A stretch of 64,000 nucleotides of DNA from an uncultured Prevotella sp. (GTDB lineage: Bacteria; Bacteroidota; Bacteroidia; Bacteroidales; Bacteroidaceae), in the NCBI GenBank assembly GCA_934202525.1, contig CAKPYB010000012.1, positions 23,645-87,644 of the forward strand. The letters are read 5' to 3'. Shown piece after piece: positions 3,160-43,188 of this stretch. The notes under the pieces were generated by a model. It saw nothing but the letters and a program-made list of their open reading frames with translations. It was not told the DNA's origin and searched no databases. The position numbers were made by a program, and so were the translations under genes. The first letter of the stretch is position 1; each line of letters opens with the position of its first letter.

Positions 3160-4416
3160 TCAGAATTCCAGCAGCCATTTCCATAGAGGGATTATCTCTA
3201 TGCGGCAACCATCCTTCTCCACAATATCCTCCTCGTCCTTTGTCACAACAATCATCCGCTTGACATTCTGGACAGAAGAAAGTTTGATCAGCCCATCTGT
3301 CTCCCGCCTGAAAGTATCGGGATCTGACATAGAGTAGGAAACCTGTATGGCCAATTCTTCTTCCGGAATCACAAAATCCACCTCGGCATTCCTGCTGTTC
3401 CAGAAATAGCTGCCGTCACCATATTTCCGCCTGAGCGTGACGGCAACTATGTTTTCCAGCAACGAAGTGTCTGCATCTACAAGAAAAAGATGAAGCAAGC
3501 CATTGTCCGTAAAATAATACTTGCGGTTGGATTCCTTGTCCTGTAACTTTCCGAACAAATTCTCATACGGCAAAATGAGCCAGGTGTCAGCCATGTAGCC
3601 CACATAATCTATCGTGGCATCCGTACTGAGTTTTTTGCCGGTACAGCTCACGATGCTGGCTATTCTGCTGTAAGATAATGGCTGCTTCACGCTTTCCGCC
3701 ATCTTGCGAATCATTACCCGCAGGGCATAGTCGTTGCGAATCTTATATCTAGCCACCAAATCTCCAAAGAATATTTTACTGAAGAGATTGCTCATCCACG
3801 ACCTTGGCTCCTTCATCCCCACCGTCTCAGGCAAACCTCCATGCAGGAAATAGATATTAGTGAGTCTTACAATATCCTTAGCGTAAGCATAGAGGGCATT
3901 CTTTGCCTTTACATCAATACCGCTCGCCTTCAGATATTCGGCAAAGGAATAGGGATACACCTCATGTATCATGTACCTGCCGCCGAGTGTTGTCGCTATC
4001 TCGCTGCTCAACATCTTGGCATTACTACCCGTGATGTAAACCTGATATTTCTGATCTGCCAACCTGCGGGCAAACTTTTCCCATCTATCTACCAGCTGAA
4101 CCTCGTCGAGGAAGAAGATAGGACGACAGTCATACATTTCTTCATAACAGGTTTTTATCAGGTCTAGGTCGGTCACATCCAAGGAGTCAATACGGTCATC
4201 CTCGAAGTTGAAGTACAGGATTTCCTCCCGCTTATGCCCCTGTTCCAACAGCTGTGCTATGCGCTGATACATCAGATACGATTTTCCTGCGTGTCTCAAT
4301 CCTACAAACACGTAATTCAGTCCATCCATGAGCTCTACGTCACGATGAACCAGTTCTACCTGAGTAACATAAGCCTGATACTCAGTAATCAGTAATTTAA
4401 TCAAATCCTTCGTCAT
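3160..4416 (-). CDS. AAA ATPase with DUF4143 C-terminal domain (locus A)
   Basis: 418 aa from the ATG at 4416. The open frame continues upstream through the promoter and its repeats, but TATCTTTG at 4452-4445 lies inside that extension, so the start at 4416 is preferred. AAA_14-type ATPase domain: P-loop GLRHAGKS near residue 40, Walker B IFFLDEV, sensor YITGSN. The C-terminal DUF4143 region has a PD-(D/E)XK-like trace (AEVDFVIP ... IQVSYS). Where paralogues in this window read EVK, this one reads QVS, so the nuclease-like site is probably degenerate. The biological role of the family is not established. The gene sits alone between a terminator and a non-coding region, and two 33-bp-spaced direct repeats precede it. 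Confidence 0.75.
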   Translation of the reverse strand: MTKDLIKLLITEYQAYVTQVELVHRDVELMDGLNYVFVGLRHAGKSYLMYQRIAQLLEQGHKREEILYFNFEDDRIDSLDVTDLDLIKTCYEEMYDCRPIFFLDEVQLVDRWEKFARRLADQKYQVYITGSNAKMLSSEIATTLGGRYMIHEVYPYSFAEYLKASGIDVKAKNALYAYAKDIVRLTNIYFLHGGLPETVGMKEPRSWMSNLFSKIFFGDLVARYKIRNDYALRVMIRKMAESVKQPLSYSRIASIVSCTGKKLSTDATIDYVGYMADTWLILPYENLFGKLQDKESNRKYYFTDNGLLHLFLVDADTSLLENIVAVTLRRKYGDGSYFWNSRNAEVDFVIPEEELAIQVSYSMSDPDTFRRETDGLIKLSSVQNVKRMIVVTKDEEDIVEKDGCRIEIIPLWKWLLEF

Positions 4417-4444
4417 AATTCCCTTTCTTTTTACTGAATCCGGT

Positions 4445-4512
4445 GCAAAGATACACATTTTATCGTTTATAGACGACAAAAACAACAACTTTTTATCGTT
4501 TATAGACGACAA
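4445..4512 (-). promoter_or_regulatory. promoter plus two 33-bp-spaced direct repeats (locus A)
   Basis: Minus strand: TATCTTTG at 4452-4445. Two copies of GTCGTCTATAAACGATAAAA (extended core on the plus strand at 4458-4479 and 4491-4512) are offset by exactly 33 bp. The promoter-proximal copy ends 5 nt from TATCTTTG, so the array covers the upstream promoter region. No good TTTG lies at the usual spacing. Confidence 0.75.
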
Positions 4513-4938
4513 GCATCATTTTTAGGGCAATTTTGCGCTGGGAAGATTACCCTTCTAAGAGAAGAAAATATTATTTCCAGTTAGGAAAATAAAAATCTCT
4601 AACTGGGAAAATATTTAGGATGAAAATAACTCAAAACAGACAGCTGAGACTCACTTTCCGGTTTTTCCGGCTCTAAATCGGGCAATAGTCTCAGTTATCT
4701 CGTTTTTTCCTTCATTTTTTAGAAGAACATGTTTTGTATTTCAGCAAGGTCTAAATCTACTTTAAAGCCAAAAACAAAGCAATTTTGCGGGTTTTGGAAA
4801 CCTAAAAAGAGTGTTTTTGGAAAGTATTTGGAATAACATGCAGGGCTGTGATTGAAAACGAAAATCTGCAAAACATTCATAAGTCATTGCTTTCTAGGGA
4901 ATTAGATTATTATCTCTTTTCCTTTTACTTGCTTCCTT

Positions 4939-5107
4939 AGTCTCAGTCTCAGAGTCTCAGTTGTTTTTCAAGCACCCCCTCTTCTTCTTATATACTTATA
5001 TATTAATATATAATTAATTAATAATCAATAAGTTATAAAGATAAAGAAAGAGGGAGCGGAAGAATGGTACCCCCTTATTTTATAACTGAGACTCTGAGAC
5101 TGAGACT
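4939..5107. repeat. hairpin element 1, perfect 24-bp terminal inverted repeats
   Basis: The arms at 4939-4962 and 5084-5107 are perfect 24-bp inverted copies built from CTGAGACT/AGTCTCAG units. Inside are a pyrimidine-rich stretch, an AT-rich core (5007-5036) shared with element 2, and a purine-rich stretch complementary to the pyrimidine one. No ORF. It looks like a MITE-like or structured intergenic element. Confidence 0.75.
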
Positions 5108-5187
5108 CCTTCCAATTAATTGGAACGCCACTTCATCACATTAACTTTCTGATAATAAGCCTTTTAGAAGAAAGCAGATTAGAAAAT

Positions 5188-5379
5188 CTTCCAGATTCCA
5201 GTTCTTCCAATTAATTTTTCAGCATATCCCTCCTACCCTGATTTTTATATATATTTATATATATTATATATATAATTAATTAATAATCAATAAGTTATAT
5301 AATAATAAGAAGTAAAGAAGAAGGACAAGCGAAAGATGCATACCCTCTTAAAATTAATTGGAAGAACTGGAATTGGAAG
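5188..5379. repeat. hairpin element 2, same core with different arms
   Basis: The arms (about 5188-5217 and 5350-5379) are inverted copies containing TTCCAGTTCTTCCAATTAAT, with a single-base difference. The AT-rich core at 5270-5299 is identical over about 30 bp to that of element 1 (ending ATAATCAATAAGTTATA). The arms are unrelated in sequence to those of element 1. No ORF. Confidence 0.75.
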
Positions 5380-5803
5380 ATTGGAACAAACTGATTGGAA
5401 CGCAGTCCAGGAAAATCTCCTCTTCTCTAGAAGGCAAAACCTAGCCATCTGCTTTTCCACGTAAATACTCTCTTCGCTTATGCAGGTAGCTGAAACCGCA
5501 AGAATTAGATGGAATAGGAATAGGCAGCTCGTTCTGCGCCGTGATGATTTCCTGCAAGTTTGCCCTGCGCTAGAAGCGGAAGTGGATGAGCTTATCCATA
5601 TTCCCCAAGAAAAGCATAAAAATTCCTTAAATAAAGCAACTTTTAGAATTATTTCGAAGTATAGTTAGAAATATTTTCGTATTTTTGCAAAGTATACTTT
5701 AAAATATTTCTGTATGGACAAGCAAATTATCAAAATCCAAAGAATTATCACAACGGAAATGATTAACTTTGCAAACGGAAAATACAGAAAAGACTGTAGA
5801 TAA

Positions 5804-6169
5804 ATGCAGAGGATAACGCATAAGAGAATCAGAATTTCCTGGCTGCTGCTATTGGTTTACCTTCCGATGCTGCTGGTCGTTACGTTTCACCATCATGGTG
5901 AAGCACAGGGAACTCATGCAGATTTCTATTGTGCTGATTGCGCCCATCATGTTCATCACGACGGCCATCTGACAGCCCTACAGAATACCATGCACGACTG
6001 TGTGCTTTGCCAATTGCAAAGCACTCCTTATCTGGCTCCATCCCTCGTGGTTTGGGTTGCCATCGCCGTGCTCCATATCTCCCCTCGCCGTGCGTTCTGC
6101 TCTCCTTGCTTGTGCAGGGCGAAGGGGGTAAAATCTACCCGTGCCCCACCTTATTCTCTGTTTTTATAA
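5804..6169 (+). CDS. small His/Cys-rich membrane-anchored protein
   Basis: 121 aa. An N-terminal hydrophobic segment (ISWLLLLVYLPMLLVVTF) is followed by a metal-ligand-rich stretch (HHHGE, CADCAHHVHHDGH, HDCVLC) and a second hydrophobic segment near residue 85. The His and Cys clusters suggest binding of a transition metal. The gene lies 39 bp before a TonB receptor that itself has a His/acid-rich loop, so a shared role in metal uptake or sensing is inferred. No named family is recognised. TAACTTTG at 5764-5771 would give a leader of about 25 nt. The arrangement resembles small DUF-type genes that accompany metal receptors in Bacteroidota. Confidence 0.65.
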   Translation: MQRITHKRIRISWLLLLVYLPMLLVVTFHHHGEAQGTHADFYCADCAHHVHHDGHLTALQNTMHDCVLCQLQSTPYLAPSLVVWVAIAVLHISPRRAFCSPCLCRAKGVKSTRAPPYSLFL

Positions 6170-6208
6170 ATAATTGAATATTAACAGAATAAGGTAACAA
6201 ATAACATA

Positions 6209-8428
6209 ATGAGAACAATATTGAAAGCAATATTGCTGATGAGTCTGTGCTCATCGGCAACAGCCCCTGCTATGGCTATAAACAGAGCAAATCATGATAA
6301 GAAGGACGCAAACATTCATGAAGAAGAGGCAAACGATTCTACCAGACACCAGCCTCTGACGGAATCGAGCGTGAAACTGAACGATGTGGTGGTTACGGGA
6401 TTGACTGGCAGCCAGAAACTCAAGCAGTCGCCCGCACCCATCTCCTTCGTTTCTGCCCGCCAGCTCGAAATGCAACCTTCTACCAACATCATCGACGCCA
6501 TCGCCCACCAGCCAGGCGTTTCGCAGATTACCACGGGAAGCGGAATTTCAAAGCCCGTGATCCGTGGCTTGGGCTATAACCGCGTGGTAGTGGTAAACGA
6601 TGGAATAAGACAGGAAGGACAGCAATGGGGCGATGAGCACGGAATAGAAATCGACCCTGCTTCGGTTCATTCCGTAGAGATTCTGAAAGGCCCTGCAAGT
6701 CTTATGTATGGCTCGGATGCGATGGCAGGCGTCCTCATCTTCCACTCCGCTCCTACCCTTGCCAAGGGCGACATGAGAGCAAATTTTTCAACGGGTTATC
6801 AAACCAACAACGGACTTTTTGATTATTCGCTCAACTTTGCCGGCAACCAGGGCGGATTTGTATGGAACACCCGCTACAGCGGAAAGATGGCACATGCCTA
6901 CAAGAACAAATACGATGGTTATGTATTCGGTTCATCACTCAGAGAGCAGGCATTCTCGCAGCTTCTAGGCTGGAACTACCGCCAGGGGCATTCGCATCTC
7001 ACACTCGATTATTATCATCTCACTCCGGGCATCGTAGAGGGAGAAAGAGATGAGAAAACGGGCGAACTGGAAATTCCGGAAGGCTACGATGCCAAGAGTT
7101 ACGGCAAACCGATGCCTTATCAGCAGATTCACCATAACAAGGCGGTGCTCGACAATTCCTGGTTCCTGGGCGACGGCAATCTGAAACTCCTCTTGGGTTA
7201 TCAGCAGAACCGCCGTCAGGAGTTTGAGGAGGAAGAGAATCCGAAGGAATGCGGACTCGATTTCATGCTCCATACCGTGAATTACGACCTGCATTATCTC
7301 TCGCCGGAAATGAATGGATGGAAGTTCTCTACGGGCATCAACGGCATGTGGCAGCAGTCGATTAATAAAGGTTCTGAATTTCTGATTCCAGCCTATCATC
7401 TCTTCGATTATGGTATATTTGCCACGATGAGCAAGGAGATAGGCAAGCTGAACCTGAGCGGCGGAATCAGATACGATCATCGCCATCTGCACAGCGAGGC
7501 TTTGAGAGAAGAAGATGATGCAGATTCGCATAGTTCTGAATCGAATGATTCTTTCCGCTTCCAAGCCTTTAAACGCAGCTTTGAGGGAGTAACCGGAAGC
7601 ATCGGCTTGGCTTACGAAATCCTGCCCGATTTCAATCTGAAACTGAACCTGGCAAGAGGATTCCGTGCTCCAAACATCAGCGAATTATCATCTAATGGTG
7701 TGCACGAGGGAACCCAGCGATACGAATTGGGAAATACCAGCCTGAAGCCGGAGAACAGTTGGCAATTCGACCTCGGTCTGGATTATTCTTCGCCTATCAT
7801 TTCGGCAGAACTCTCGCTATTTGCCAATCGCATCAACCATTACATCTACAGCGAGAAGTTGGCAGATGAGAACAATCAGCCTGTCCTTATCGACGACACA
7901 CCAGCCTATCAGTTTACATCGGGCGACGCCCGCATTCTGGGTGGTGAGGCGAGCATCGACATCCATCCTGTGGAGCGTCTGCATTTCGGCAACACCTTCT
8001 CGTATGTCAACTCGGTTCAGTTGCATCAGCCATCCGAATCAAAGTATCTGCCATTCACCCCTGCCCCTCGCTGGGTTTCGGATGTAAGGTATGAGTTTGT
8101 CTGCGACGGCAAGATTTTCGACCATCTCTTCGTTAAGCTGCAGATGGATTGCAATCTCCGCCAGAACCATTATTTCGCAGCCAACGAGACGGAGACCGCT
8201 ACGCCATCGTACACCTTATTAAATATGTATGCCGGTACCGACGTGAAGCTCCATGGCAAGCGCCTTCTCTCGCTCTATCTTTCGGGCGAGAACCTTACCA
8301 ACCGTGCTTACCAGAGCCACCTGAGCCGTCTGAAGTATCTTGACGTAAACCAGGTTACGGGCAGAAGAGGCGTTTACAATATGGGCCGCAACTTCAGCAT
8401 AAAGGTAGTGGTTCCTATAGAGTTGTAA
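6209..8428 (+). CDS. TonB-dependent receptor, probably for zinc or another metal (ZnuD-like)
   Basis: 739 aa. Signal peptide (MRTILKAILLMSLCSSATAPAMA), then a plug domain (about 55-170) with VIRGLGYNRVVVVNDGIRQ and SVEILKGPASLMYGSDAMAG, and a 22-strand-type barrel ending in a Leu-terminated strand. There is no carboxypeptidase-like or STN domain, so it is a classic receptor rather than SusC. The plug resembles that of ZnuD-type zinc receptors. A loop around residues 420-445 (HRHLHSEALREEDDADSHSS) is rich in His, Asp and Glu, as expected for metal capture. It probably forms an operon with the His-rich protein upstream. Substrate assignment is inference. A strong terminator follows. Confidence 0.8.
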   Translation: MRTILKAILLMSLCSSATAPAMAINRANHDKKDANIHEEEANDSTRHQPLTESSVKLNDVVVTGLTGSQKLKQSPAPISFVSARQLEMQPSTNIIDAIAHQPGVSQITTGSGISKPVIRGLGYNRVVVVNDGIRQEGQQWGDEHGIEIDPASVHSVEILKGPASLMYGSDAMAGVLIFHSAPTLAKGDMRANFSTGYQTNNGLFDYSLNFAGNQGGFVWNTRYSGKMAHAYKNKYDGYVFGSSLREQAFSQLLGWNYRQGHSHLTLDYYHLTPGIVEGERDEKTGELEIPEGYDAKSYGKPMPYQQIHHNKAVLDNSWFLGDGNLKLLLGYQQNRRQEFEEEENPKECGLDFMLHTVNYDLHYLSPEMNGWKFSTGINGMWQQSINKGSEFLIPAYHLFDYGIFATMSKEIGKLNLSGGIRYDHRHLHSEALREEDDADSHSSESNDSFRFQAFKRSFEGVTGSIGLAYEILPDFNLKLNLARGFRAPNISELSSNGVHEGTQRYELGNTSLKPENSWQFDLGLDYSSPIISAELSLFANRINHYIYSEKLADENNQPVLIDDTPAYQFTSGDARILGGEASIDIHPVERLHFGNTFSYVNSVQLHQPSESKYLPFTPAPRWVSDVRYEFVCDGKIFDHLFVKLQMDCNLRQNHYFAANETETATPSYTLLNMYAGTDVKLHGKRLLSLYLSGENLTNRAYQSHLSRLKYLDVNQVTGRRGVYNMGRNFSIKVVVPIEL

Positions 8429-8482
8429 TTCCCCTTTCAGGATAAGCAATTCCTCTATCAGGAATCAGAATTTAGAATAAAC

Positions 8483-8546: not shown

Positions 8547-8581
8547 TCGTCTTTTTTTTATTGTTTCTCAGAATTTTATCC

Positions 8582-8678
8582 TATCTTTGCAACCGAAAGT
8601 CCCTTGGAAAAGTGGCAGAACAGAGCAAAAAGTCCCTTGAAAAACGTGCACGGATTCAAGAAAAGTCCCTTGAAAAAC
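8582..8678 (+). promoter_or_regulatory. promoter and three 33-bp-spaced repeats in the transcribed leader (locus B)
   Basis: TATCTTTG at 8582-8589, then five bases, then three copies of (G)AAAGTCCCTTGRAAAA with AAAGT starting at 8596, 8629 and 8662: exact 33-bp period. The expected transcription start falls at the edge of the first copy, so the repeats are in the 5' leader. The same repeat at the same distance precedes ATPase locus C. The leader continues about 45 nt to the ATG at 8724. Confidence 0.8.
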
Positions 8679-8723
8679 GTGCGCAGCATCAAGAGCCGTA
8701 CATCATAAATCATTAGAGAACAG

Positions 8724-10046
8724 ATGTTTAAACGAAAAATCGAGAAATATCTCAAAGAATGGAAGAGTGATGAGCACAAAATGCCTCTCATCATCAAAGG
8801 ATGTCGCCAATGTGGAAAGACATTCTCGGTACTCGATTTTGCCCATAAGAATTATGAGCATGTTGTGTATCTAGACTTTTTCCAGCATCCAGAATACAAG
8901 TCGGTATTTGATGGTGGTCTGGATATCGATCTTCTCTGCATGACCCTTTCTACCTTAATACCTGATGCCAATTTCACATCGGGCAAAACCTGCATCATCT
9001 TTGACGAGATACAAGAATGCCCACGTGCTCGCACAGCCTTGAAATTCTTCAAGACTGATGGCAGATACGATGTCATCGGTACGGGTTCCCTGCTGGGAGT
9101 CAGCGGTTACCATACCAATGCTTCGTCAGAGGCTCCAATTCCTGTAGGTTACGAGACCATCATAGACATGTATCCAATGGATTTTGAGGAATGGCTCTGG
9201 GCAAATGGCATTAAGAAAATGACCATCGACTACCTGCATCGCTGCCTGGAAGAAAAGACTCCAGTACAAGAAGCCATCCACGAAAGAATGCGCCAACTGC
9301 TGCTGCAATATTGCATTGTTGGCGGAATGCCAAGAGCCGTGAGCGTATTTATGGAAACTCATAATATGCAAAACGTGCTACGGATGCAGCAAGCCATCAT
9401 CGAAGAATATAAAGTAGATATGCTGAAATATGCTCCACAAGCAGACAAGTCGAGAATCAGAGAATGCTTCGAGTCAATTCCACGTCAACTGAGTAAGGAA
9501 AACAAGAAATTCGCATACGCCACAGTACGCCCCAACGGCAGAGGACGTGACTATCAGGGCAGTTTGCAATGGATAGAAGATGCTGGCATTATCCGCCGTT
9601 GCTACAACCTGTCAGCACCCGAACTCCCACTAGATGGCAACTCCATCCCCGACCAGTTTAAGGTTTACATGGCAGATACGGGACTTTTCATCAGTATGCT
9701 CGAACCTGGAACAGCAGCTGATATTCTGCAAGGCAATCTCTATGGATACAAGGGAGCCATCTTTGAAAATCTGGTGGCCGACATCTTTGGCAAGATGAAT
9801 CGCAAGCTCTATTATTTCCGCAAGGATTCGGGTTTGGAAATAGACTTTGTTACAAGATACGAAGGCAAATGCACTTTGGTAGAAGTAAAGGCGAGCAACG
9901 GAAACATCAAAAGTGCCAAGACCATCCTTTCGAATCCCGAAAAGTATCACGTATCTCAAGCCATCAAACTGGGAGATGTAAATGTGGGAACAGCCCCACA
10001 GACTCTCATTCTTCCCCTCTACATGGCTTTTCTGCTGGTAGACTAA
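8724..10046 (+). CDS. AAA ATPase with DUF4143 C-terminal domain (locus B)
   Basis: 440 aa. P-loop IKGCRQCGKT (about 24-33), Walker B TCIIFDEIQECP, sensor VIGTGSLLG. The DUF4143 part follows from about 190, with a helical linker (QADKSRIRECFESIP) and a PD-(D/E)XK-like ending (SGLEIDFVTRY ... LVEVKASNG). It is closely related along its whole length to locus C in this window and shares that gene's upstream repeats. The family's role is unknown; it is common and multi-copy in Bacteroidota. The two-component regulator gene starts 49 bp downstream on the same strand with no terminator visible, so read-through from the ATPase promoter is possible. Confidence 0.78.
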   Translation: MFKRKIEKYLKEWKSDEHKMPLIIKGCRQCGKTFSVLDFAHKNYEHVVYLDFFQHPEYKSVFDGGLDIDLLCMTLSTLIPDANFTSGKTCIIFDEIQECPRARTALKFFKTDGRYDVIGTGSLLGVSGYHTNASSEAPIPVGYETIIDMYPMDFEEWLWANGIKKMTIDYLHRCLEEKTPVQEAIHERMRQLLLQYCIVGGMPRAVSVFMETHNMQNVLRMQQAIIEEYKVDMLKYAPQADKSRIRECFESIPRQLSKENKKFAYATVRPNGRGRDYQGSLQWIEDAGIIRRCYNLSAPELPLDGNSIPDQFKVYMADTGLFISMLEPGTAADILQGNLYGYKGAIFENLVADIFGKMNRKLYYFRKDSGLEIDFVTRYEGKCTLVEVKASNGNIKSAKTILSNPEKYHVSQAIKLGDVNVGTAPQTLILPLYMAFLLVD

Positions 10047-10095
10047 AGATAGAAGCAGGACATCAAGGAAAATATCATCATAAAAAAAACGAACA

Positions 10096-11460
10096 ATGAT
10101 TAAGAAACAAGGAACGATATTGATTGTTGATGACAACCGCAACATTCTTACTACGGTAAGGATGCTGCTGGAACCCATATTCGATGGCATCATCACCATC
10201 GCCAACCCTAACTCCATCCCAGCCAAGCTGAGAGAGGAGCACCCCGACGTGGTGCTGCTCGACATGAACTTCTCCAGCGGAATCAATTCGGGAAACGAGG
10301 GATTGTACTGGCTCAGGGAAATCAAGAGCCTCAGCCCGAAAACTGAGGTGGTGCTCTTTACCGCCTATGCCGACATCCAACTTGCCGTAACAGGCATCAA
10401 GGAAGGTGCCGCCGACTTCATCGTGAAGCCTTTCGAAAACGAGAAGATGATCCGTACGCTGGTAGAGGCTAGGGATAAGAACAGGGCTGTGGATAACGTT
10501 ATTAACAGAAATGGTGGAAAACCAGGTGTAAAAGATACGCAAAGCGCTATGTATTGGGGAGATAGCGAAGTTATGAACAATTTGAGAAATATTGTGGAAA
10601 AAGTTGCCGCAACCGATGCGAATATCCTCATTACGGGAGAAAACGGAACGGGTAAAGAGGTGTTAGCCAACGAGATACATCGTTTATCCACAAGATGTGG
10701 AAAGAAAATGCTGCCTGTGGATATGGGAGCCATCACGGAAACCCTTTTCGAGAGCGAACTCTTCGGTCATGTGAAAGGTGCCTTTACCGATGCTAAGGTA
10801 GATAAACCGGGCAAGTTTGAGCTTGCCGACGGCAGTACCATCTTCCTGGATGAGATAGGAAACTTATCCTATGGTCTTCAGGCAAAACTCCTTACCGCCC
10901 TGCAACGCAGAAGCATCGTAAGAGTGGGCGGAAGTACGCAGATTCCCATCAACGTACGACTGGTTTGCGCCACCAACCGCAACCTGCAGCAGATGGTAAA
11001 CGATGGCGAATTCAGAGAGGATCTGCTCTATCGCATCAACACCATCCATCTGGAATTGCCTGCCCTGAGACAGAGAAAATCAGACATCGTTCCGCTGGCA
11101 GAAAGATTCCTCCGTCAATATGGCGATTTATATAATAAGATGAATCTCCGTCTTTCGGAAGAGGCTGAGAAAAAACTTACCAGTTTGCCTTGGTACGGCA
11201 ATATCCGTGAACTTCAGCACGCCATCGAGAAAGCCGTGATTCTATCTGACGGCGGAATGATTTCTGCCGAAGATATTGACGGCGGAAACCAGCAGAGAAA
11301 AGAAAAACCCCTGGAAGAGGTGCAGACGCTCGACGAGATGGAAAGCCGAATGATAGAGAAAACCATCAGAGAATGCGAAGGCAATCTGTCGGTAGTTGCC
11401 GCAAGACTGGGCATTTCCCGCCAGACGCTTTATAATAAGATTAAGCGATACGGGTTGTAG
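10096..11460 (+). CDS. sigma-54-dependent response regulator (NtrC family)
   Basis: 454 aa. Receiver domain with the acidic pair DD (12-13), phospho-acceptor Asp56 (VVLLDMNF) and the Lys in VKPF. AAA+ activator domain from about 155: Walker A GENGTGKE, the sigma-54-contacting GAFTDA loop (present and intact), Walker B TIFLDEIG. Fis-type helix-turn-helix at the C-terminus (VAARLGISRQTLYNKIKRYG). It activates sigma-54 promoters when phosphorylated, most likely by the histidine kinase encoded 88 bp downstream. The target is probably the nearby efflux block. The second regulator at 24.0 kb is a paralogue without the AAA+ domain. Confidence 0.92.
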   Translation: MIKKQGTILIVDDNRNILTTVRMLLEPIFDGIITIANPNSIPAKLREEHPDVVLLDMNFSSGINSGNEGLYWLREIKSLSPKTEVVLFTAYADIQLAVTGIKEGAADFIVKPFENEKMIRTLVEARDKNRAVDNVINRNGGKPGVKDTQSAMYWGDSEVMNNLRNIVEKVAATDANILITGENGTGKEVLANEIHRLSTRCGKKMLPVDMGAITETLFESELFGHVKGAFTDAKVDKPGKFELADGSTIFLDEIGNLSYGLQAKLLTALQRRSIVRVGGSTQIPINVRLVCATNRNLQQMVNDGEFREDLLYRINTIHLELPALRQRKSDIVPLAERFLRQYGDLYNKMNLRLSEEAEKKLTSLPWYGNIRELQHAIEKAVILSDGGMISAEDIDGGNQQRKEKPLEEVQTLDEMESRMIEKTIRECEGNLSVVAARLGISRQTLYNKIKRYGL

Positions 11461-13555: not shown

Positions 13556-14347
13556 ATGGCATTCGAAAAGGAAATCAAGGAATACGAGGATTTGAGACGC
13601 AAATATCAAACCCTTATCATCAATAAAATGGATAGAGAAGAGTACATCAAATATAATGAAGTACTCTTCTCTACCCATTCGTGCGCCATTGAAGGCAACT
13701 CATTCTCCGTAGATGATACTCGGGAACTGAAGGAGAAAGGTCTGGGGATGATTCCTGCCGGAAAGACGCTCTTCGAGGCTTTCGAAATGCTTGACCACTT
13801 CGAAGCCTTCGAGTACATGATGCAAAACACGCAGCATCCGCTCGACGAGAATCTTCTGAAAGAAATCAACAGACGGGTTACCAGCCACACGCTTTCCTAC
13901 CGTTCTCCAGAAGCCATTCCAGGCGAATACACCACCACGGATATGGCTGCAGGCGACACGGTATTTGGCGACCACGAAGAACTCATCGCCAGAGTTCCCA
14001 AGCTGTTGGAATCTACCGAAAAAGCCATCGTTTCGGCAGCCGTTCATCCCATGATTCTTGCCGCCCGTTTCCATGGTTTCTACGAATATCTCCATCCGTT
14101 CCGTGATGGGAATGGAAGAACAGGACGACTCATCAGCAACTACATTCTCCTAAGATTGAATCATCCGCTCCTCATCATCCCATCCGAAGCCCGCCAGGAA
14201 TACATTTCTGCCCTCCGCATGATTCGTACGGAAGCAACTGACGAGCACCTCATCCGCTTCTTTTTCAAGATGGCAATACAGAGAATGGAAGAAGAGCTGA
14301 AACAGAAAGAGGCTAACACCAAGCGATTTATGACATTCCTCTTCTAA
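13556..14347 (+). CDS. Fic family AMPylase/nucleotidyltransferase
   Basis: 263 aa. The Fic core motif HPFRDGNGRTGR (about 181-192) is complete, so catalysis is likely. An N-terminal inhibitory helix with S-x3-E-G (SCAIEGN, near residue 43) marks it as a class II Fic protein, which keeps itself inactive until relieved. Fic proteins transfer AMP or similar groups to target proteins. It is the third gene of an operon with MNT and HEPN, an unusual pairing of two nucleotidyl-transfer families. Immediately after the stop lies an orphan repeat-promoter unit. Confidence 0.9.
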   Translation: MAFEKEIKEYEDLRRKYQTLIINKMDREEYIKYNEVLFSTHSCAIEGNSFSVDDTRELKEKGLGMIPAGKTLFEAFEMLDHFEAFEYMMQNTQHPLDENLLKEINRRVTSHTLSYRSPEAIPGEYTTTDMAAGDTVFGDHEELIARVPKLLESTEKAIVSAAVHPMILAARFHGFYEYLHPFRDGNGRTGRLISNYILLRLNHPLLIIPSEARQEYISALRMIRTEATDEHLIRFFFKMAIQRMEEELKQKEANTKRFMTFLF

Positions 14348-14356
14348 TATGCTCAA

Positions 14357-14424
14357 ACATTTTACGGATTTCGGCATATTCACGCTAAAACATTTTGCGG
14401 ATTTCGGCAAAAGCCTTATCTTTG
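14357..14424 (+). promoter_or_regulatory. orphan 33-bp repeat pair and promoter with no gene downstream (locus E)
   Basis: Two copies of ACATTTTRCGGATTTCGGCA start at 14357 and 14390 (33-bp offset). TTTG at 14394-14397 lies inside the second copy, and TATCTTTG follows at 14417-14424 after 19 bp. The architecture matches ATPase locus D, including the distance between last repeat and promoter. Only about 47 bp remain before the converging ABC ATPase stop codon, so no ATPase gene is present. Confidence 0.75.
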
Positions 14425-26156: not shown

Positions 26157-26276
26157 ACAGCCGACTAGCCACTCATGCGCTAGTCGGCTGTTTACGTTTT
26201 GCCAGTTAGCTATTTATATTTTGCCAGTTGGCTATTTATATTTTGCCAGTTGGCTATTTTCGTTTCTCCCATCGGC
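26157..26276. repeat. array of 10-bp palindromic sites at 22-bp period
   Basis: Sites start at 26179 (GCTAGTCGGC), 26201 (GCCAGTTAGC), 26223 and 26245 (GCCAGTTGGC) with a degenerate copy at 26267: exact 22-bp spacing. A perfect hairpin AACAGCCGACTAGC / GCTAGTCGGCTGTT (about 26157-26191) overlaps the first site. The design, not the sequence, matches the array at 49.96-50.1 kb. Confidence 0.65.
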
Positions 26277-27564: not shown

Positions 27565-28908
27565 TTAGGGTTGTCTTAATAAAAAAGCCATATACAAAGG
27601 AATGGTAAGAAGTTGGTTGCTCCTACCCACATTATAATCGCCTAGTTTAATGGCATGAAATACATGATATTTGTCGGGATTGGCAAGAATAGTCTTCGTA
27701 CTCTTGGTATTTCCATCCTTGGCCTTCACCTCCACCAATACACATTCTCCCTTGTAACGTATCACAAAATCAACTTCCAATCCGGAGTCCTTACGGAAAT
27801 AATACAGTTTTCTCTTCATCTTCGTAAAGATGTCTGCTATCAGATTTTCAAAGATAGCACCTTTATAACCATAAAGATTACCCTGCAAAATATCAAATTG
27901 CGTACCATCTTCCAACATAGACACGAACAAGCCAGTATCTACCATATAAACTTTGAATGCATCCTGCATAGCATTTCCATCCAAAGGCAACTCTGTAATA
28001 TTAAGGTTGCGGCAACGGGTGATGATACCTGCATCTTCTATCCATTGAAGACTACCCTGATATTGAGAAGCTTTGCTGTTCTTACGCACAACGGCATATT
28101 GAAACTTTTTATTTTCCTTACTCAGTTGAATAGGAATCGATTCAAAACATTCTCTGATTCTAGATTTATCTGCTTCGTCTGCATATTTTACCATGTCATC
28201 CTCGTATTCCGCAATGATATTGCGTTGTTCTTCCAAAACTTTTCCCAAATCATGATATTGAAGAAACAGATTTACAGCTGCAGGCATTCCTCCAACAACA
28301 GTATATTGCAGGATCAACTGCCGGAAACGCAAATGTAAAGCATCAGGAACAGGCATCTCATTTTCAAAACATTCTTTCACCTTATCAATAACAGGCTCCG
28401 TGATACCATTCGCCCATAGAAACTCCTCAAAATCCAAAGGATACATATCTACAATCTTCTCATATCCTACAGGAATTGAGTTTTTATATGTTTCACCAGC
28501 ATCTTTACCGGTCCGAGTTCCATACCCTCTCACTCCCAACAAGGATCCTGTGGCAATCACATCATACCGCCCATCCATCTGGAAAAATTTCAAAGCAGTA
28601 CGAGCAGCAGGACATTCCTGTATCTCATCCAATATCAAACAGGTTTGCTTTGGCAGAAATACACTTCCCGGAATCATCGCAGAAATATTGATGACCATAT
28701 CATCTACTGCTTTTGATCCCTCGAAAGCTAGAGCATAATCTGAGTTGAGCATGAAGTTAAGATAAACCACATGCTGATATTTTTCGTGCGCAAATTTCAT
28801 CACGCTGAAAGTTTTACCACATTGCCTACAACCTTTTATGACAATGGGCTTATGATTTTCCTCTTGTTTCCAAGTTAAGAGAACATCTTCAATCTTTCTT
28901 TTTAGCAT
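27565..28908 (-). CDS. AAA ATPase with DUF4143 C-terminal domain (locus C)
   Basis: 447 aa from the ATG at 28908, preceded by AGAAAGG; a GTG two codons upstream is less likely. P-loop IKGCRQCGKT, Walker B TCLILDEIQECP, sensor VIATGSLLG. DUF4143 part with DKSRIRECFESIP and the PD-(D/E)XK-like SGLEVDFVIRY ... LVEVKAKDG. It is a close paralogue of locus B over its whole length. The same repeat, in three copies at 33-bp period, lies in both leaders. It is inserted between ribD and prmC. Function unknown. Confidence 0.78.
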   Translation of the reverse strand: MLKRKIEDVLLTWKQEENHKPIVIKGCRQCGKTFSVMKFAHEKYQHVVYLNFMLNSDYALAFEGSKAVDDMVINISAMIPGSVFLPKQTCLILDEIQECPAARTALKFFQMDGRYDVIATGSLLGVRGYGTRTGKDAGETYKNSIPVGYEKIVDMYPLDFEEFLWANGITEPVIDKVKECFENEMPVPDALHLRFRQLILQYTVVGGMPAAVNLFLQYHDLGKVLEEQRNIIAEYEDDMVKYADEADKSRIRECFESIPIQLSKENKKFQYAVVRKNSKASQYQGSLQWIEDAGIITRCRNLNITELPLDGNAMQDAFKVYMVDTGLFVSMLEDGTQFDILQGNLYGYKGAIFENLIADIFTKMKRKLYYFRKDSGLEVDFVIRYKGECVLVEVKAKDGNTKSTKTILANPDKYHVFHAIKLGDYNVGRSNQLLTIPLYMAFLLRQP

Positions 28909-28948
28909 AAGCACCTTTCTATTAGAGTATTACAAAGACTCAAGACTA

Positions 28949-29044
28949 TTTTTCAAGGGACTTTTCAGAACCTTGCGCCTATTTTCCAAGGGACTTTTCT
29001 CGAGTTCACGCCTATTTTCCAAGGGACTTTCGTGGGCAAAGATA
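28949..29044 (-). promoter_or_regulatory. promoter and three 33-bp-spaced repeats in the transcribed leader (locus C)
   Basis: Minus strand: TATCTTTG at 29044-29037, five bases, then three copies of (G)AAAGTCCCTTGRAAAA. On the plus strand CAAGGGA starts at 28954, 28987 and 29020: exact 33-bp period. Promoter-to-repeat distance and first-copy sequence are identical to locus B. Confidence 0.8.
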
Positions 29045-35018: not shown

Positions 35019-35035
35019 CCTTAAAGTTTTTCCTT

Positions 35036-37776: not shown

Positions 37777-37971
37777 CTTTTGTCATTACGAAAATATTAC
37801 CCCATAAAGACAAAAATACCACAAAAAACAGACAAAAACGAATGGTAAAATCGTCCAAGACGGGGTAATTTCTATTCTCTAAGGTGTAATAATTGATTTT
37901 AATTACCTTTTAAATTTACGAAAATCACTAATTCTAATAAAAATTACCCCATATAGGATAAAAAAATGCAT

Positions 37972-37979
37972 TACCTTTG
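37972..37979 (+). promoter_or_regulatory. promoter element of the 32-aa gene
   Basis: TACCTTTG, about 64 bp before the ATG at 38043. The upstream TTTG element is not clear. Confidence 0.55.
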
Positions 37980-38042
37980 CAAACGTAAAAAGAACGCTAG
38001 CACAACGCTAGTTTAATTATTAACAACAAAACTATTAAGATT

Positions 38043-38141
38043 ATGGATTGCATTTTTAAAATTACAAACGCAGTAAAGAAGATTGGTTTCGTAATTCTTC
38101 TTGCAGAGTTGGCCGTTATCGCCTATATGAACGTAATGTAA
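38043..38141 (+). CDS. 32-residue membrane peptide
   Basis: Reads MDCIFKITNAVKKIGFVILL and continues AELAVIAYMNVM to TAA at 38139. A short basic amphipathic start leads into one hydrophobic helix. It has its own promoter and a leader of about 55 nt. A structured RNA with terminator follows, so the transcript likely ends near 38352. No family recognised; the reading frame could also be incidental to the RNA. Confidence 0.5.
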   Translation: MDCIFKITNAVKKIGFVILLAELAVIAYMNVM

Positions 38142-38169
38142 GAAATCTCTCTATAGATATAAATATATA

Positions 38170-38352
38170 AGGAGGAAGTTTTCTACATACTAAGGTAATT
38201 AGATTGTAAAAGGTCAACAACATAAGTTGTCAAAACGAATAAGTTCGTAGAAAAAGTAAATGATAATAATTAGGTACAGTCCTATCAGGGAGGAGTCTGA
38301 TGGAAATGTACAAGATGGGAGGCTCTTGCAGAGATGCGAAGGGCCTTTTTTT
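38170..38352 (+). ncRNA. candidate structured RNA ending in an intrinsic terminator
   Basis: Several nested pairings are visible. GTTTTCTAC (38178) pairs with GTAGAAAA (38247), closing two small hairpins (ACAAC-ATAA-GTTGT and CGAA-TAAG-TTCG). Next is a longer hairpin GTACA..TCC..ATCAG / CTGAT..GGA..TGTAC (38274-38311) with GGGAGGAG in its loop. Last is a terminator AGGCTCTT / AAGGGCCT plus T-run (38320-38352). It lies between the 32-aa gene and metG. It may be a small RNA, the 3' part of the 32-aa mRNA, or an attenuator before metG. metG has its own promoter afterwards, which favours the first two. Confidence 0.55.
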
Positions 38353-38472
38353 GTATCCTGCCCTACGCTATCCTTACTATAAAAACACTAAAGAACCCAG
38401 CTTTTTACACCTTATTATATATATAAGTAAGAAAAAGCGACGATAATTCTTTCTTATCTCCAACATTTTTTG

Positions 38473-38480
38473 TAATTTTG
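38473..38480 (+). promoter_or_regulatory. promoter element of metG
   Basis: TAATTTTG, about 30 bp before the metG start codon. Confidence 0.6.
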
Positions 38481-38510
38481 CAGCCAAATAACAAAAATAT
38501 ATTAGCTAAT

Positions 38511-40577
38511 ATGGAACAAAAGAACTTTAAACGTACTACCGTGACTGCGGCTTTGCCTTATGCCAACGGTGGTGTGCACATCGGTCACCTGGCAGGTGTT
38601 TACGTGCCAGCCGATATCTATGTTCGCTATCTCCGCCTCAAGAAGCAGGATGTTGTCTTCATCGGCGGTAGCGATGAGCATGGTGTACCTGTTACTATCC
38701 GTGCCAAGAAAGAAGGAATTACCGTACAGGAGGTGGTTGACCGCTATCATAACCTCATCAAGAAGAGTTTCGAGGACTTCGGTATCTCTTTTGATATTTA
38801 CAGCCGTACCACTTCGCCAACTCACAATAAGTTTGCTTCAGACTTCTTCCGCACACTCTATGACAAGGGCGTATTGGAAGAAAAGGTAGAGGAGCAGTTC
38901 TGCGACGAGGTAACAGGCGAATTCCTTACCGACCGTAATATCGTAGGTACTTGCCCTCGCTGTGGTGCAGAGGGTGCTTATGGCGACCAATGCGAGAAAT
39001 GTGGTGCTACCCTCTCTCCTGAGGAGCTCATCAACCCTACCAACAAGAACAACCCTGGTCATGGTCTCGTAAAGAAGCCTACCAAGAACTGGTATCTTCC
39101 ATTGAACAAGTATCAGGATTGGTTGAAGAAGTGGATCCTGGAAGGCCACAAAGAGTGGCGTACCAATGTTTACGGCCAATGCAAGAGCTGGTTGGACATG
39201 GATCTTCAGCCACGTGCGATGACACGCGACTTGGATTGGGGTATTCCTGTTCCAGTAGAGGGTGCAGATGGAAAGGTGCTCTACGTTTGGTTCGATGCAC
39301 CTATCGGTTACATCTCAAATACCAAAGAACTCTGCGATGCTCATCCAGAAAAGTGGGGAACATGGCAGAAGTGGTGGCAGGATCCTGAGACCCGTCTCGT
39401 TCACTTCATCGGTAAGGACAATATCGTGTTCCACTGCATCATCTTCCCTACTATGCTGAAGGCTCACGGCGACTATATCTTGCCAGACAACGTACCAGCC
39501 AACGAGTTTCTGAACCTGGAGGATGATAAGATTTCAACATCCCGCAACTGGGCTGTATGGTTGCACGAGTATCTCGTAGATTTGCCAGGCAAGCAGGATG
39601 TATTGCGCTATGTATTGACAGCCAATGCGCCTGAGACCAAGGACAACAACTTTACCTGGAAGGATTTCCAGGAGCGCAACAACTCTGAGTTGGTTGCCGT
39701 TTACGGTAACTTCGTAAACCGTGCCCTCCAGCTCACCAAGAAGTATTGGGGCGGCGTAGTTCCTGCCTGTGGTGAATTGCAGGAGGTAGATGAGAAGGCT
39801 ATCGCTGAGTTCAAGGACGTAAAGGAGAAGGTAGAGCAGTATCTTAACGTATTCAAGTTCCGCGAGGCTCAGAAAGAGGCTATGAACCTGGCTCGTATCG
39901 GTAACCGATACATCACAGAGTGTGAGCCTTGGAAGGTTTGGAAGACCGATCCTAAGCGTGTGGAGACCATCCTGAACATCTCCCTGCAGTTGGTTGCCAA
40001 CCTCGCTATCGCCTTCGAGCCATTCTTGCCTTTCTCTTCAGAGAAGCTCCGCAAGATGATCAATATGCCTAACTTCGAGTGGACTCAGCTCGGCAGCACA
40101 GATTTGCTCAAGGCTGGTACCCAGCTCGGTGAGCCTGAATTGCTCTTCGAGAAGATTGAGGATGAGGTTATCGAAAGACAGCTCCAGAAGCTCGCTGACA
40201 CCAAGAAGGCTAACGAGGAGGCTTCTTATCAGGCTGCTCCTATCAAGCCAGAGGTTAGCTTCGATGATTTCGAGAAACTCGATATCCGCGTAGGTCACAT
40301 TCTGAACTGCGAGAAGGTAAAGAAGTCTAAGAAACTCCTGAAGTTCACCATCGACGATGGTTCTGGTGTAGAGCGCACCATCTGCTCAGGTATCGCAGCC
40401 TACTACGAGCCAGAGCAGCTGATCGGCAAGGACGTATTGTTCGTAGCCAACTTTGCTCCTCGCAAGATGATGGGCATCGAGAGTCAGGGTATGATTCTGA
40501 GTGCAGTTAACTTCGACGGCTCATTGAACGTAACTTCTCTCCTTGGCAAGGTTAAGCCAGGAAGCCAGGTTGGATAA
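38511..40577 (+). CDS. metG: methionine-tRNA ligase
   Basis: 688 aa from the ATG at 38511; codons before it overlap the promoter. HIGH-type motif (HIGHLAG), zinc knuckles CPRC ... CEKC, KMSKS counterpart DKISTSR, anticodon-binding domain, and a C-terminal EMAP-type tRNA-binding domain ([20 protein letters not shown]). It charges tRNA-Met. It is followed by a bidirectional terminator. Confidence 0.95.
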
Positions 40578-40611
40578 AGAATCATAGAATCATCTGATTA
40601 TCAGATAAGGT

Positions 40612-40646
40612 AAAAGCCTCAAATCCTTTGCGGATTTGAGGCTTTT
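40612..40646. terminator. bidirectional intrinsic terminator
   Basis: AAAAGCCTCAAATC pairs with GATTTGAGGCTTTT around a short loop; it lies between metG and the converging outer-membrane gene. Confidence 0.85.
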
Positions 40647-40669
40647 CTTATTTCTATCCAAATATTCTT

Positions 40670-41377
40670 TTATAATGTAAAACGATAACCCACGGTAAAG
40701 GTCAGAGCCTTGTTCTTACAGTTATCCCAATCACCCTTGCTAGCCTTCGTCAGGCTCACGTTGTAACGGGCATCCAGAATCACGTTCATATATTCATAGC
40801 TCAAGCCCAGAGGAATGGCTACATCCACCTTCTTGGCAGGCCAAAGAGCTTCGGTTTCCTGCATATTCTTGTATGTAATAGACCCGTTTTTGTCCTTCTG
40901 AAGGTCGGTTTCCTCTCTTTTAACCTTGCCGTCGCCACAAAGGAATCCCACCTGAACGCCTGCATTCACCGACAAACCCTCTACAAGATAGGCTTTCAGC
41001 ATGAGCGGTACCTGGATATAATCAAGGTTCACATGATGATTCTTAATACCTGTATATTCCCCTTTTTCAGCATTCTCAGTCAACTCACAGTCAGGGAAGC
41101 GCATACCCTGTCGGGCATAATAAGCACCCAGCGTAATACCCAGGCTCTTATTTATGCGATATTCCACATCTACGCCACCCATGAATCCTGCCTGATACTT
41201 AGACTCTAGCGAGGTTCCATCCAAAGTTTCCAGAGTCAACCCGCTCCAGTTAGCCAGAGTTACACCGATACGGGGAATTACCGAGAATCGGCCTACCGGA
41301 TTCTCCACTTCTTGTGCCTTTGCTCCCACAACAGCAAGCAGCACCATCATTATAACTATTTTCTTTTTCATTTCCAC
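40670..41377 (-). CDS. outer-membrane beta-barrel protein (PorT-like)
   Basis: 235 aa. Signal peptide (MKKKIVIMMVLLAVVGAKA; the Met two codons earlier is also possible). An eight-strand-type barrel with GVTLANWSG, GGVDVEYRI, LGAYYARQG and a final strand ending FTVGYRFTL. This fits the PorT-like / outer membrane protein beta-barrel domain family. Function unknown. Monocistronic. Confidence 0.75.
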   Translation of the reverse strand: MEMKKKIVIMMVLLAVVGAKAQEVENPVGRFSVIPRIGVTLANWSGLTLETLDGTSLESKYQAGFMGGVDVEYRINKSLGITLGAYYARQGMRFPDCELTENAEKGEYTGIKNHHVNLDYIQVPLMLKAYLVEGLSVNAGVQVGFLCGDGKVKREETDLQKDKNGSITYKNMQETEALWPAKKVDVAIPLGLSYEYMNVILDARYNVSLTKASKGDWDNCKNKALTFTVGYRFTL

Positions 41378-41566
41378 AACAGTTTGTATATCATAATAAC
41401 AAGAAACAAGGGATAATATTGCATCCTACAGCCATTTTTCTCCATAACAGACCAGTTCTCGCAAAGTGTTAACAAATACAACTCATAGTTTTCTTCCCCT
41501 CAACTCACCGTTTTCTGGAGCATAAGTCATAGTTTGCACCATGACAAAGCTGTGTTTATGCCCCAA

Positions 41567-41704
41567 AAATATAACACGGACAAATTGAATTTGTCCGGAT
41601 GCTTGTCCGGTAGCTTTATAATCTTCTCATAGTCAGCGATTTATATCATGCCGGACAAATTTGTCCGGACAAATTCAATTTGTCCGTGTTTTTTTCTTGG
41701 AAAG
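41567..41704. repeat. palindrome cluster, left flank of the locus D ATPase
   Basis: ACGGACAAATTGAATTTGTCCG (in 41567-41598), shorter CCGGACAAATTTGTCCGG units and a second, partly inverted copy ending at 41704. Blocks of 32 bp and 28 bp within it recur in the same order at 43191-43240, on the other side of the ATPase gene. Confidence 0.8.
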
Positions 41705-41730
41705 TTTTCCTCATCCCGATTAAAAGATAA

Positions 41731-41831
41731 ACATTTGGGGGATTTGGAACATTTCAAGCAAAAACATTTGGGGGATTTGGAACATTTTAACAAAAAACAT
41801 TTGGGGGATTTGGAACTTATATGTATCTTTG
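41731..41831 (+). promoter_or_regulatory. three 33-bp-spaced repeats overlapping the promoter (locus D)
   Basis: ACATTTGGGGGATTTGGAAC starts at 41731, 41764 and 41797: exact 33-bp period, near-perfect copies. TTTG of the third copy (41800-41803) is the -33 element, followed after 20 bp by TATCTTTG (41824-41831). The layout matches orphan locus E. Confidence 0.85.
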
Positions 41832-41850
41832 CGCTCAAAATCAGCAAGTT

Positions 41851-43188
41851 ATGAGAAATAGAATATTTAAAAGAAAAGTGTACAACAAAATGCTCGAATG
41901 GAAGCGAGAGAGAAATGGTAGCACAGCTCTCTTGCTCAAAGGAGCACGCCGTGTAGGAAAGTCAACAGTAGCCAAAGCATTCGCAGAAAATGAATACAAA
42001 AGCTATATCCTTATAGATTTCGTACAAGCATCTAAGGAAGTGAAACAGCTGTTTGACAACCTCATGGACTTGAACTACATATTTTTACGCCTCCAATCAA
42101 TCTACCAAGTAATCTTGGAACCACGCAAATCAGCCATCATTTTCGATGAAGTACAAATGTGCCCACAAGCCCGGCAAGCCATCAAATACCTAGTAGCAGA
42201 CGGAAGATACGACTACATAGAGACAGGTTCTCTTATCAGCATCAAAAAGAATGTAGAAAACATTTTGATTCCAAGCGAAGAGACACGTTTGGAGCTCTAT
42301 CCGATGGACTACGAGGAATTTCGATGGGCTATGGGTGATACTGCTACCTTTCCCCTACTCAAGCAGTTTTTCGATACAAAAGTTCCATTGGGAGCAGCGC
42401 ATCGAGAAGCCATGCGCAACCTTCGTCTATATATGCTCGTAGGCGGAATGCCACAAGCCGTAAACGAGTACTTAGAAACCAACAATCTGAGCAAAACAGA
42501 TGCCGTAAAGCGAGAAATCATAGAGCTTTATCTTGACGACTTTAGAAAGATTGACAAAACAGGAAGAGCTGCCAAGTTATTCGAGAATATTCCTTCCGAA
42601 TTAAACAAAAATTCAGCCAGATACCAGGTAGCAAGCGTACTGGATGATGCAGGCAGAAAGAACCTTATGGGAGTCTTGGCAGACATGAAAGACAGCATGG
42701 TGGTCAACTTCGCCTACCACGCAAATGATCCCAATGTCGGTTTTTCATTACATAGTGACGAAGACTACTATAAAATGTTTGTTGGAGACACAGGTCTATT
42801 CGTCACACTTGCTTTTTGGGATAAAGACTACACAGAGAACACCATTTACGAAAGGTTGTTGAGCGATAAACTGAGTAGCGATATGGGGTATGCCTATGAG
42901 AATCTCGTTGCCCAAATGCTTACCGCATCAGGAAACAAACTTTTCTATTACACATTTCCCCATGCAACGAGTCACAAGAACTATGAGATAGATTTCTTGC
43001 TATCTCGTGGCAAGAAGATTTATCCGATAGAAGTGAAATCTTCAGGATATAACAGTCACAAGTCGCTAGATGAATTTTGCCAGAAGTTCTCTGATAGAAT
43101 CGACAAAAGATACCTATTATATACGAAAGATTTTAAAAAAGATGGACAGACCTTATTGGTGCCAATATATATGACACCCTTGCTATAA
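41851..43188 (+). CDS. AAA ATPase with DUF4143 C-terminal domain (locus D)
   Basis: 445 aa from the ATG at 41851; the longer frame would begin inside the promoter. P-loop KGARRVGKST, Walker B AIIFDEVQMCP, sensor IETGSLI. DUF4143 part with FENIPSELNKNSARYQV and the PD-(D/E)XK-like YEIDFLLSRG ... PIEVKSSG. A different subfamily from loci B and C. The gene and its repeats are enclosed by direct copies of a palindromic sequence (41567-41704 and 43191-43240). The right copy ends in a T-run and serves as terminator. Function unknown. Confidence 0.78.
   Translation: MRNRIFKRKVYNKMLEWKRERNGSTALLLKGARRVGKSTVAKAFAENEYKSYILIDFVQASKEVKQLFDNLMDLNYIFLRLQSIYQVILEPRKSAIIFDEVQMCPQARQAIKYLVADGRYDYIETGSLISIKKNVENILIPSEETRLELYPMDYEEFRWAMGDTATFPLLKQFFDTKVPLGAAHREAMRNLRLYMLVGGMPQAVNEYLETNNLSKTDAVKREIIELYLDDFRKIDKTGRAAKLFENIPSELNKNSARYQVASVLDDAGRKNLMGVLADMKDSMVVNFAYHANDPNVGFSLHSDEDYYKMFVGDTGLFVTLAFWDKDYTENTIYERLLSDKLSSDMGYAYENLVAQMLTASGNKLFYYTFPHATSHKNYEIDFLLSRGKKIYPIEVKSSGYNSHKSLDEFCQKFSDRIDKRYLLYTKDFKKDGQTLLVPIYMTPLL

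What the first reader, a model, noticed from the sequence alone, without database searches (positions are those of the whole stretch)
4416..43188. Four of four AAA/DUF4143 ATPase genes carry upstream direct repeats with an exact 33-bp period, locked to the promoter
Loci A (4458-4512), B (8596-8678), C (28949-29031) and D (41731-41816) each have two or three direct repeats of 16-22 bp; together with orphan locus E (14357-14409) all eight repeat-to-repeat offsets are exactly 33 bp. In every case a TATCTTTG element lies 5-7 bp from the array. The repeat sequence differs between ATPase subfamilies but is shared by the two closest paralogues (B and C), so site and protein appear to evolve together. 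The adjacent AAA-ATPase of another family (43.4 kb) has none. 33 bp is about three helical turns, so copies fall on one face of DNA. Best reading: a cognate protein-site module, either autoregulation by the ATPase or the recognition site of a selfish cassette. I know of no description of it.
Basis: partly seen in the sequence, partly recalled or inferred. Interest (0 to 1): 0.9.

Follow-up and report, generated by a model that had tools for sequence, protein, structure and literature searches.

The report
ATPase cassettes carrying matched DNA-repeat operators
A very common but poorly understood bacterial gene family, listed as a candidate anti-virus defence, often carries its own short DNA repeats at its promoter, spaced about three turns of the DNA helix, and the repeats change together with the protein, as if each protein recognises and switches its own gene.

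Summary
The window holds four AAA_14/DUF4143 genes; all four carry 33-bp-phased repeats, and no other lag stands out. Among 229 family members, 95 reach the score threshold at lag 33, 35 at lag 32, plus multiples; the only other cluster is 23 (15) with 46. Period 23 marks one protein clade, 11 of 12. Repeat sequence follows protein similarity across genomes (Mantel r 0.58, 0 of 2000), and sharing a genome does not raise it (0 of 69 dissimilar pairs). The -7 box keeps one phase to the array in Bacteroidota (43 of 51), TATAAT another in Firmicutes (26 of 71). Near-identical genes at unrelated loci share DNA from about the array edge to the stop codon. Locus E is an orphan D-type array. All four proteins match PADLOC's PDC-S01. 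Ten searches of one paper library gave no description of the repeats. Best reading: each ATPase binds its own array and represses its promoter, and array plus gene move as one cassette. Binding, repression and the way of moving are inferred.

The parts
4455..4513 (-). Array A: two copies of TTGTCGTCTATAAACGATAAAA, 33 bp apart, upstream of the -7 box
4446..4453 (-). TATCTTTG -7 box of A (Bacteroidota TAnnTTTG, consensus recalled)
3160..4416 (-). ATPase A: AAA_14 + DUF4143; its group lacks the E-x-K of the nuclease motif
8582..8589 (+). TATCTTTG -7 box of B, upstream of the array
8596..8684 (+). Array B: three units like AAAAGTCCCTTGAAAAACGTGC, 33 bp apart
8724..10046 (+). ATPase B: AAA_14 + DUF4143, PDC-S01 match; structure predicted
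14355..14409 (+). Orphan array E: two units, 33 bp apart, D-type motif, no ATPase gene or remnant detected
14417..14424 (+). TATCTTTG -7 box of the orphan array E
28946..29031 (-). Array C: three units like AAAAGTCCCTTGGAAAAT, 33 bp apart, downstream of the -7 box
29037..29044 (-). TATCTTTG -7 box of C
27565..28914 (-). ATPase C: 65% identical to B; lies between ribD-like and prmC-like genes that are close divergent neighbours in several genomes of a related genus
41727..41818 (+). Array D: three units like AAACATTTGGGGGATTTGGAACATTT, 33 bp apart
41824..41831 (+). TATCTTTG -7 box of D
41851..43188 (+). ATPase D: AAA_14 + DUF4143, PDC-S01 match
41666..41704 (.). Left copy of a 39-bp near-identical direct repeat (terminator-like) that flanks cassette D
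43202..43240 (.). Right copy of the same direct repeat, 13 bp after the stop codon of D

Best explanation
Each gene is a self-contained cassette: a promoter, an array of direct repeats (mostly 2-5) spaced 32-33 bp (23 bp in one clade), and one gene for an AAA+ ATPase with a winged-helix-like part and a PD-(D/E)XK-type C-terminal domain. Shown by computation: the array, its period, its fixed phase to the core promoter, its co-variation with the protein, and shared DNA limited to array plus gene between unrelated loci. Inferred: the ATPase binds its own array, probably through the winged helix, one protomer per about three helical turns, so that subunits line up on one face and cooperate. The bound row overlaps the core promoter and keeps expression low. 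Occupancy would thus measure the protein's level and nucleotide state, and a trigger such as phage infection or DNA damage would release it. The likely payload is defence or selfish maintenance.
Against: No binding or expression data. 56 of 229 genes show no array by this test, 39 of them in the A clade and the clade of shorter proteins. Only 47% of 1788 between-genome pairs at >=50% protein identity reach the motif threshold, and the rise is not smooth (46% at 45-50%, 34% at 50-60%). The small control pattern for the -7 box (reversed letters) also fell at phases 19-20 in 4 of 6 hits. Of 15 single-copy B-type matches in the 13 genomes, 1 of the 8 looked at lies before an ATPase; the reversed-pattern control gave 4 matches. 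Locating the DNA-reading part by co-variation gave only weak peaks (residues 356-375 and 246-265) and missed the expected recognition helix. PDC-S01 is an unvalidated defence candidate. Neighbours were not surveyed for a separate regulator.
Confidence: 0.67

Rival explanations
1. The array is a cis site for mobility: the ATPase and its nuclease domain act on the array to move or integrate the cassette, and promoter overlap is secondary.
For: Of 14 pairs at >=80% DNA identity not marked syntenic, 12 end within 40 bp of the first unit and within 14 bp of the stop codon. L031 against L027 and L034 is 97.4-97.6% identical from -129 to +14, with unalignable DNA next to it. A plasmid cassette (L462) stands where relatives have HipA genes, with ends 13 bp or so before the array and 6 bp past the stop. 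C fills a ribD-prmC gap that is 25-135 bp in 14 of the 17 loci where both genes were seen. Flanking direct repeats (score >=14): 32 of 185 genes, against 0 of 184 mispaired and 8 of 239 other genes.
Against: Array at one end only; no common inverted ends seen; direct repeats vary from 14 to 223 bp, and the one example tested is part of a dispersed repeat; 2 of the 14 pairs extend beyond the cassette; the nuclease motif is degraded in the A group, whose clade still has arrays; the promoter phase needs a separate reason.
Confidence: 0.17
2. A host DNA-binding protein reads the arrays.
For: Arrays sit at promoters with a regular period.
Against: Dissimilar paralogues in one genome share no motif (0 of 69 pairs), while many similar proteins in different genomes do; the B-type motif occurs in loci labelled Bacteroidota, Firmicutes and Spirochaetes.
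Confidence: 0.03
3. The repeats act as RNA or as mini-CRISPR arrays.
For: In B and C the array lies in the presumed transcribed leader; repeat-spacer look.
Against: In A, D and E it is upstream of the -7 box; linkers are 11-12 bp and carry almost no information; period and promoter phase are fixed. RNA folding and Rfam were not tried.
Confidence: 0.03
4. The repeats are neutral tandem duplications by slippage.
For: The window has other tandem repeats, at periods 22, 7 and 10 among others.
Against: One period across diverged motifs; units conserved while linkers are free; promoter phase.
Confidence: 0.02

Closest known systems
PDC-S01 (PADLOC candidate phage defence, single gene)
   Same: All four proteins hit its models, best E 2.7e-89 to 2e-152; described as ATPase fused to PD-(D/E)XK and as the fourth most common defence across prokaryotes (passages of PMC12988326).
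   Different: The passages I saw mention no upstream repeats, operator or cassette; I did not see the full texts.
RptR repressor of a defence island
   Same: Represses a defence promoter by binding three direct repeats (abstract of PMC12255303).
   Different: RptR is a small separate regulator with a 6-bp palindromic core; here the unit is about 21 bp, directional, at 32-33 bp, and the ATPase itself is the proposed binder.
Archaeal ATPases SSO1545 (2FNA) and PABY2304 (2QEN), and Orc1/Cdc6
   Same: Closest solved folds to residues 1-327 are 2QEN and 2FNA, with Orc/Cdc6 chains further down; Orc1/Cdc6 bind repeated origin boxes (recalled).
   Different: Their aligned part stops before the C-terminal nuclease-like domain; I know of no own 33-bp arrays for them (recalled).
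Autoregulatory C proteins of restriction-modification systems (recalled)
   Same: Defence gene under control of its own repeated operator.
   Different: There a small controller protein binds; here the ATPase itself is the proposed binder.

Membership tests
AAA_14-DUF4143 ATPases (PF13173, PF13635) | Both Pfam domains over the curated cut-off | tested here: met
   A-D
PDC-S01 | Match to the PADLOC models | tested here: met
   A-D
PDC-S01 | Anti-phage activity | not testable with these tools
   needs an experiment; validation pending for most PDCs per a PMC12988326 passage
PD-(D/E)XK nucleases | E/D...D...E-x-K motif | tested here: met
   B, D and p23 groups nearly invariant (E387: 124 of 125, 20 of 20, 12 of 12); not met in the A group, 0 of 31 with E-x-K
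PD-(D/E)XK nucleases | Fold of the C-terminal domain | tested here: inconclusive
Insertion sequences / DNA transposons | Terminal inverted repeats and target duplication of fixed length (recalled) | tested here: inconclusive
   no shared inverted ends seen, without a control of its own; direct repeats of variable length around 32 of 185
CRISPR arrays | Unique spacers of about 26-50 bp (recalled) | tested here: not met
   11-12 bp linkers, 1-6 units found per gene; cas genes were not searched
RptR-type defence repressors | Separate small repressor gene beside the operator | not tested
   neighbouring genes were not surveyed for one

The most novel reading that the evidence does not exclude
A new class of single-gene mobile element: array plus ATPase-nuclease gene is the whole element, the protein recognises its own array both to restrain itself and to direct its movement, and a large part of what is counted as defence family PDC-S01 is this selfish, self-regulating cassette, with a code linking protein clade to repeat sequence and helical spacing.
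Probability: 0.2. Interest if true: 0.95.

Novelty: new variant of a known kind. Interest (0 to 1): 0.82.

Why it matters
PDC-S01 is counted among the most common defence families of prokaryotes, with experimental validation still pending for most such candidates (PMC12988326 passage), and one genome here holds 32 DUF4143 matches. A cognate-looking DNA site at 78 of 81 B/C-type genes gives a direct, testable handle: what the protein binds, how it is regulated, and which residues set specificity. It may also offer a natural set of orthogonal repressor-operator pairs, and a caution against counting copies as defences.

Tried and rejected
Own genome: not held. A close relative of the window: best long match 76% DNA identity in 151 genomes, with short pieces up to 86%. 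Empty site for L031: the upstream flank was found in two relatives but the downstream flank was not beside it. Empty site for L126: its direct repeat proved part of a dispersed repeat of about 209 bp, which weakens the target-duplication idea. L205's repeat looks like the 3' end of ssrA (recalled motif), but ARAGORN in tRNA mode found no gene there. The E-type unit has no viral match. Specificity mapping by co-variation was weak. NCBIfam gave only matches far below cut-off; no solved relative by sequence. Among 239 other genes, 40 pass the repeat test, 13 of them at lag 31-34; several share an array's intergenic region (for example the gene divergent from C), but not each was checked. Papers: searches listed nothing that points to these repeats; most listed papers were not opened, and preprints and most subscription papers are not in the library, so a description elsewhere is possible.

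Rows dropped: one search parsed 148 of 170 items (22 without a readable P-loop or read on the wrong strand) and kept 138 after removing duplicates; one search parsed 56 more (2 failed), added 52 and reached 190; one search dropped 1 duplicate of 40 and reached 229. Of 236 DUF4143 matches, 30 loci and 56 matches (overlapping) were used, and of 398, 40 regions, all from the best-scoring part of the lists. The 39 later genes are new genes, but each of their eight genomes (G390, G168, G220, G284, G238, G361, G363, G275) had already given at least one gene. In one search, 13 of 30 loci did not show both ribD and prmC. In one search, 2 of 101 pairs were set aside as syntenic.
Full report
CHECK. Searches show the repeats at the stated places. 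A self-comparison of the whole window at lags 17-120 gives eight runs at lag 33, all at A-E. A-D are AAA_14 + DUF4143 proteins and the only clear family members in the window. B and C are 65% identical; D is 34% and A 22% identical to B.

GENERALITY. Relatives were collected by protein similarity, not by repeats: the best 80 of 581 loci, whose titles name Bacteroidota, Firmicutes, Fibrobacter, Spirochaetes and one proteobacterium, DUF4143 matches of 16 genomes, and relatives of D (in 11 of 198 Bacteroidales genomes) and A (in 21 of 198) at E <= 1e-60. Of 190 genes, 138 pass a threshold (score above 12) that 95% of 60 Markov shuffles do not exceed; best lag 33 in 77, 32 in 23, 64-66 in 13, 23 in 5, the rest scattered. 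39 further genes gave 21 significant: 10 at 32-33, 5 at 23, 6 at other lags; they come from genomes that had already given a gene. Over all 229, the lags reached by at least 4 genes are 23, 32, 33, 34, 46, 64, 65 and 66 only. Among 239 other genes from the 80 loci and the window, 40 pass, 13 of them at 31-34; several of these share an array's intergenic region.

THE UNIT. In the B/C clade 78 of 81 genes have two or more units. The unit is about 21 bp, near AAAAGTCGCTTGAAAAAGTGG, with a linker of almost no information; distances are 33 (117), 32 (38), 31 (3), other (5). The unit is directional with respect to the gene.

SITE FOLLOWS PROTEIN. Motif match rises from 1% of pairs under 20% protein identity to 92% above 70%, though not smoothly in between (46% at 45-50%, 34% at 50-60%, 65% at 60-70%); Mantel r 0.58, 0 of 2000. 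Pairs under 25% identity match in 0 of 69 cases within one genome and 1.3% of 2138 between genomes, so sharing a host does not matter, which argues against a host regulator. On a tree of 229 (FastTree), a clade of 12 (support 100) has period 23 in 11 and period 33 in none, while a clade of 145 has period 33 in 127 (weak signals counted in); the A clade (37) has 15, and a clade of shorter proteins (35) is mixed. 33 and 23 differ by about one helical turn, so both could keep copies near one face (inference).

PROMOTER. In loci titled as Bacteroidota 43 of 51 TAnnTTTG boxes fall at three adjacent phases of the 33-bp cycle, whether the box is before, inside or after the array; in Firmicutes 26 of 71 TATAAT-like hexamers (one mismatch allowed; 7 of 14 exact ones) fall at another three (binomial tests). 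A small control (reversed -7 letters) had 6 hits, 4 at phases 19-20, so the control is too small to be clean. An earlier Firmicutes count chose boxes partly by a -35-like word that the unit itself contains, so one search is the one to trust. The same module thus appears fitted to two promoter grammars.

PROTEIN. AlphaFold2 of B has pLDDT 90. Residues 1-327 match archaeal ATPases 2QEN and 2FNA best, then CED-4/NLR and Orc proteins. The C-terminal domain modelled alone matches PD-(D/E)XK nucleases weakly. Walker residues are almost invariant; E-x-K is kept in B, D and p23 groups and missing in the A group, 31 of 31. PADLOC calls all four PDC-S01.

CASSETTE. L031 shares 97.4-97.6% identity with L027 and L034 from -129 to 14 bp past the stop, with unalignable DNA beside it on both sides. 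Of 14 pairs at >=80% DNA identity not marked syntenic, 12 end within 40 bp of the first unit and within 14 bp of the stop; the other two extend further; the pairs are not all independent. On a plasmid the cassette stands where related plasmids have HipA genes. C sits between ribD-like and prmC-like genes; among 30 loci of one genus 17 showed both genes, 14 of them divergent and 25-135 bp apart, and no ATPase related to C was found in the 30. Direct repeats flank 32 of 185 cassettes against 0 of 184 mispaired and 8 of 239 other genes, the window's D among them, but lengths vary and the one tested is a dispersed repeat, so I treat this as a lead.

ORPHANS. E has no gene or remnant, and its seven best-matching upstream regions among 229 genes, winD included, all belong to the D group (20 of 229; hypergeometric 1e-8). 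In 13 genomes 11 of 13 multi-copy B-type arrays precede a B-type ATPase. The two others: L003 holds a decayed B-type module abutting a second array and a shortened second ATPase, and L263 has an array now before another gene. Orphans are most simply scars of lost cassettes.

MECHANISM AND LIMITS. I favour cooperative self-binding and autorepression, with the cassette as the moving unit. Binding, repression, trigger and payload are inferred. Literature seen: passages of PMC12988326 and PMC13356809, abstract and outline of PMC12255303, otherwise search listings. The Bacteroidota -7 consensus and the C-protein comparison are recalled.

Noticed in passing
L003:430-930: Two decayed ATPase modules in a row: an array and N-terminus cut near the P-loop, abutting a second array (AAAATCGTGTTTTGGTGCA type) and an ATPase with an internal deletion, upstream of an intact third one.
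   Followed up: partly
window 3160-4416: The A-type group lacks the E-x-K of the nuclease motif (31 of 31) while keeping Walker residues, and its clade still has arrays in part.
   Followed up: partly
window 49945-50108: 22-bp tandem repeat TGACATATGTCAGGAACATTGT, about 5.5 copies, also seen with a 66-bp unit.
   Followed up: no
window 26182-26259: 22-bp tandem repeat AGTTGGCTATTTATATTTTGCC, 3.5 copies.
   Followed up: no
L126:1295-1507: Dispersed repeat of about 209 bp, several matches in each of four genomes of the same genus (G002, G388, G470, G003).
   Followed up: no
L031:2804-2837: Short stretch matched at many places in related genomes, perhaps a common promoter or terminator motif.
   Followed up: no
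L462:4449-5870: A plasmid ATPase cassette stands where related plasmids have HipA-type toxin genes.
   Followed up: partly
L456 (phage record MT836311.1) 9336-10643: An 11-kb human gut phage record carries a B-type ATPase (65% identical) with its own 33-bp array.
   Followed up: partly
window 13556-14347: A Fic-domain gene ends just before the orphan array E.
   Followed up: no
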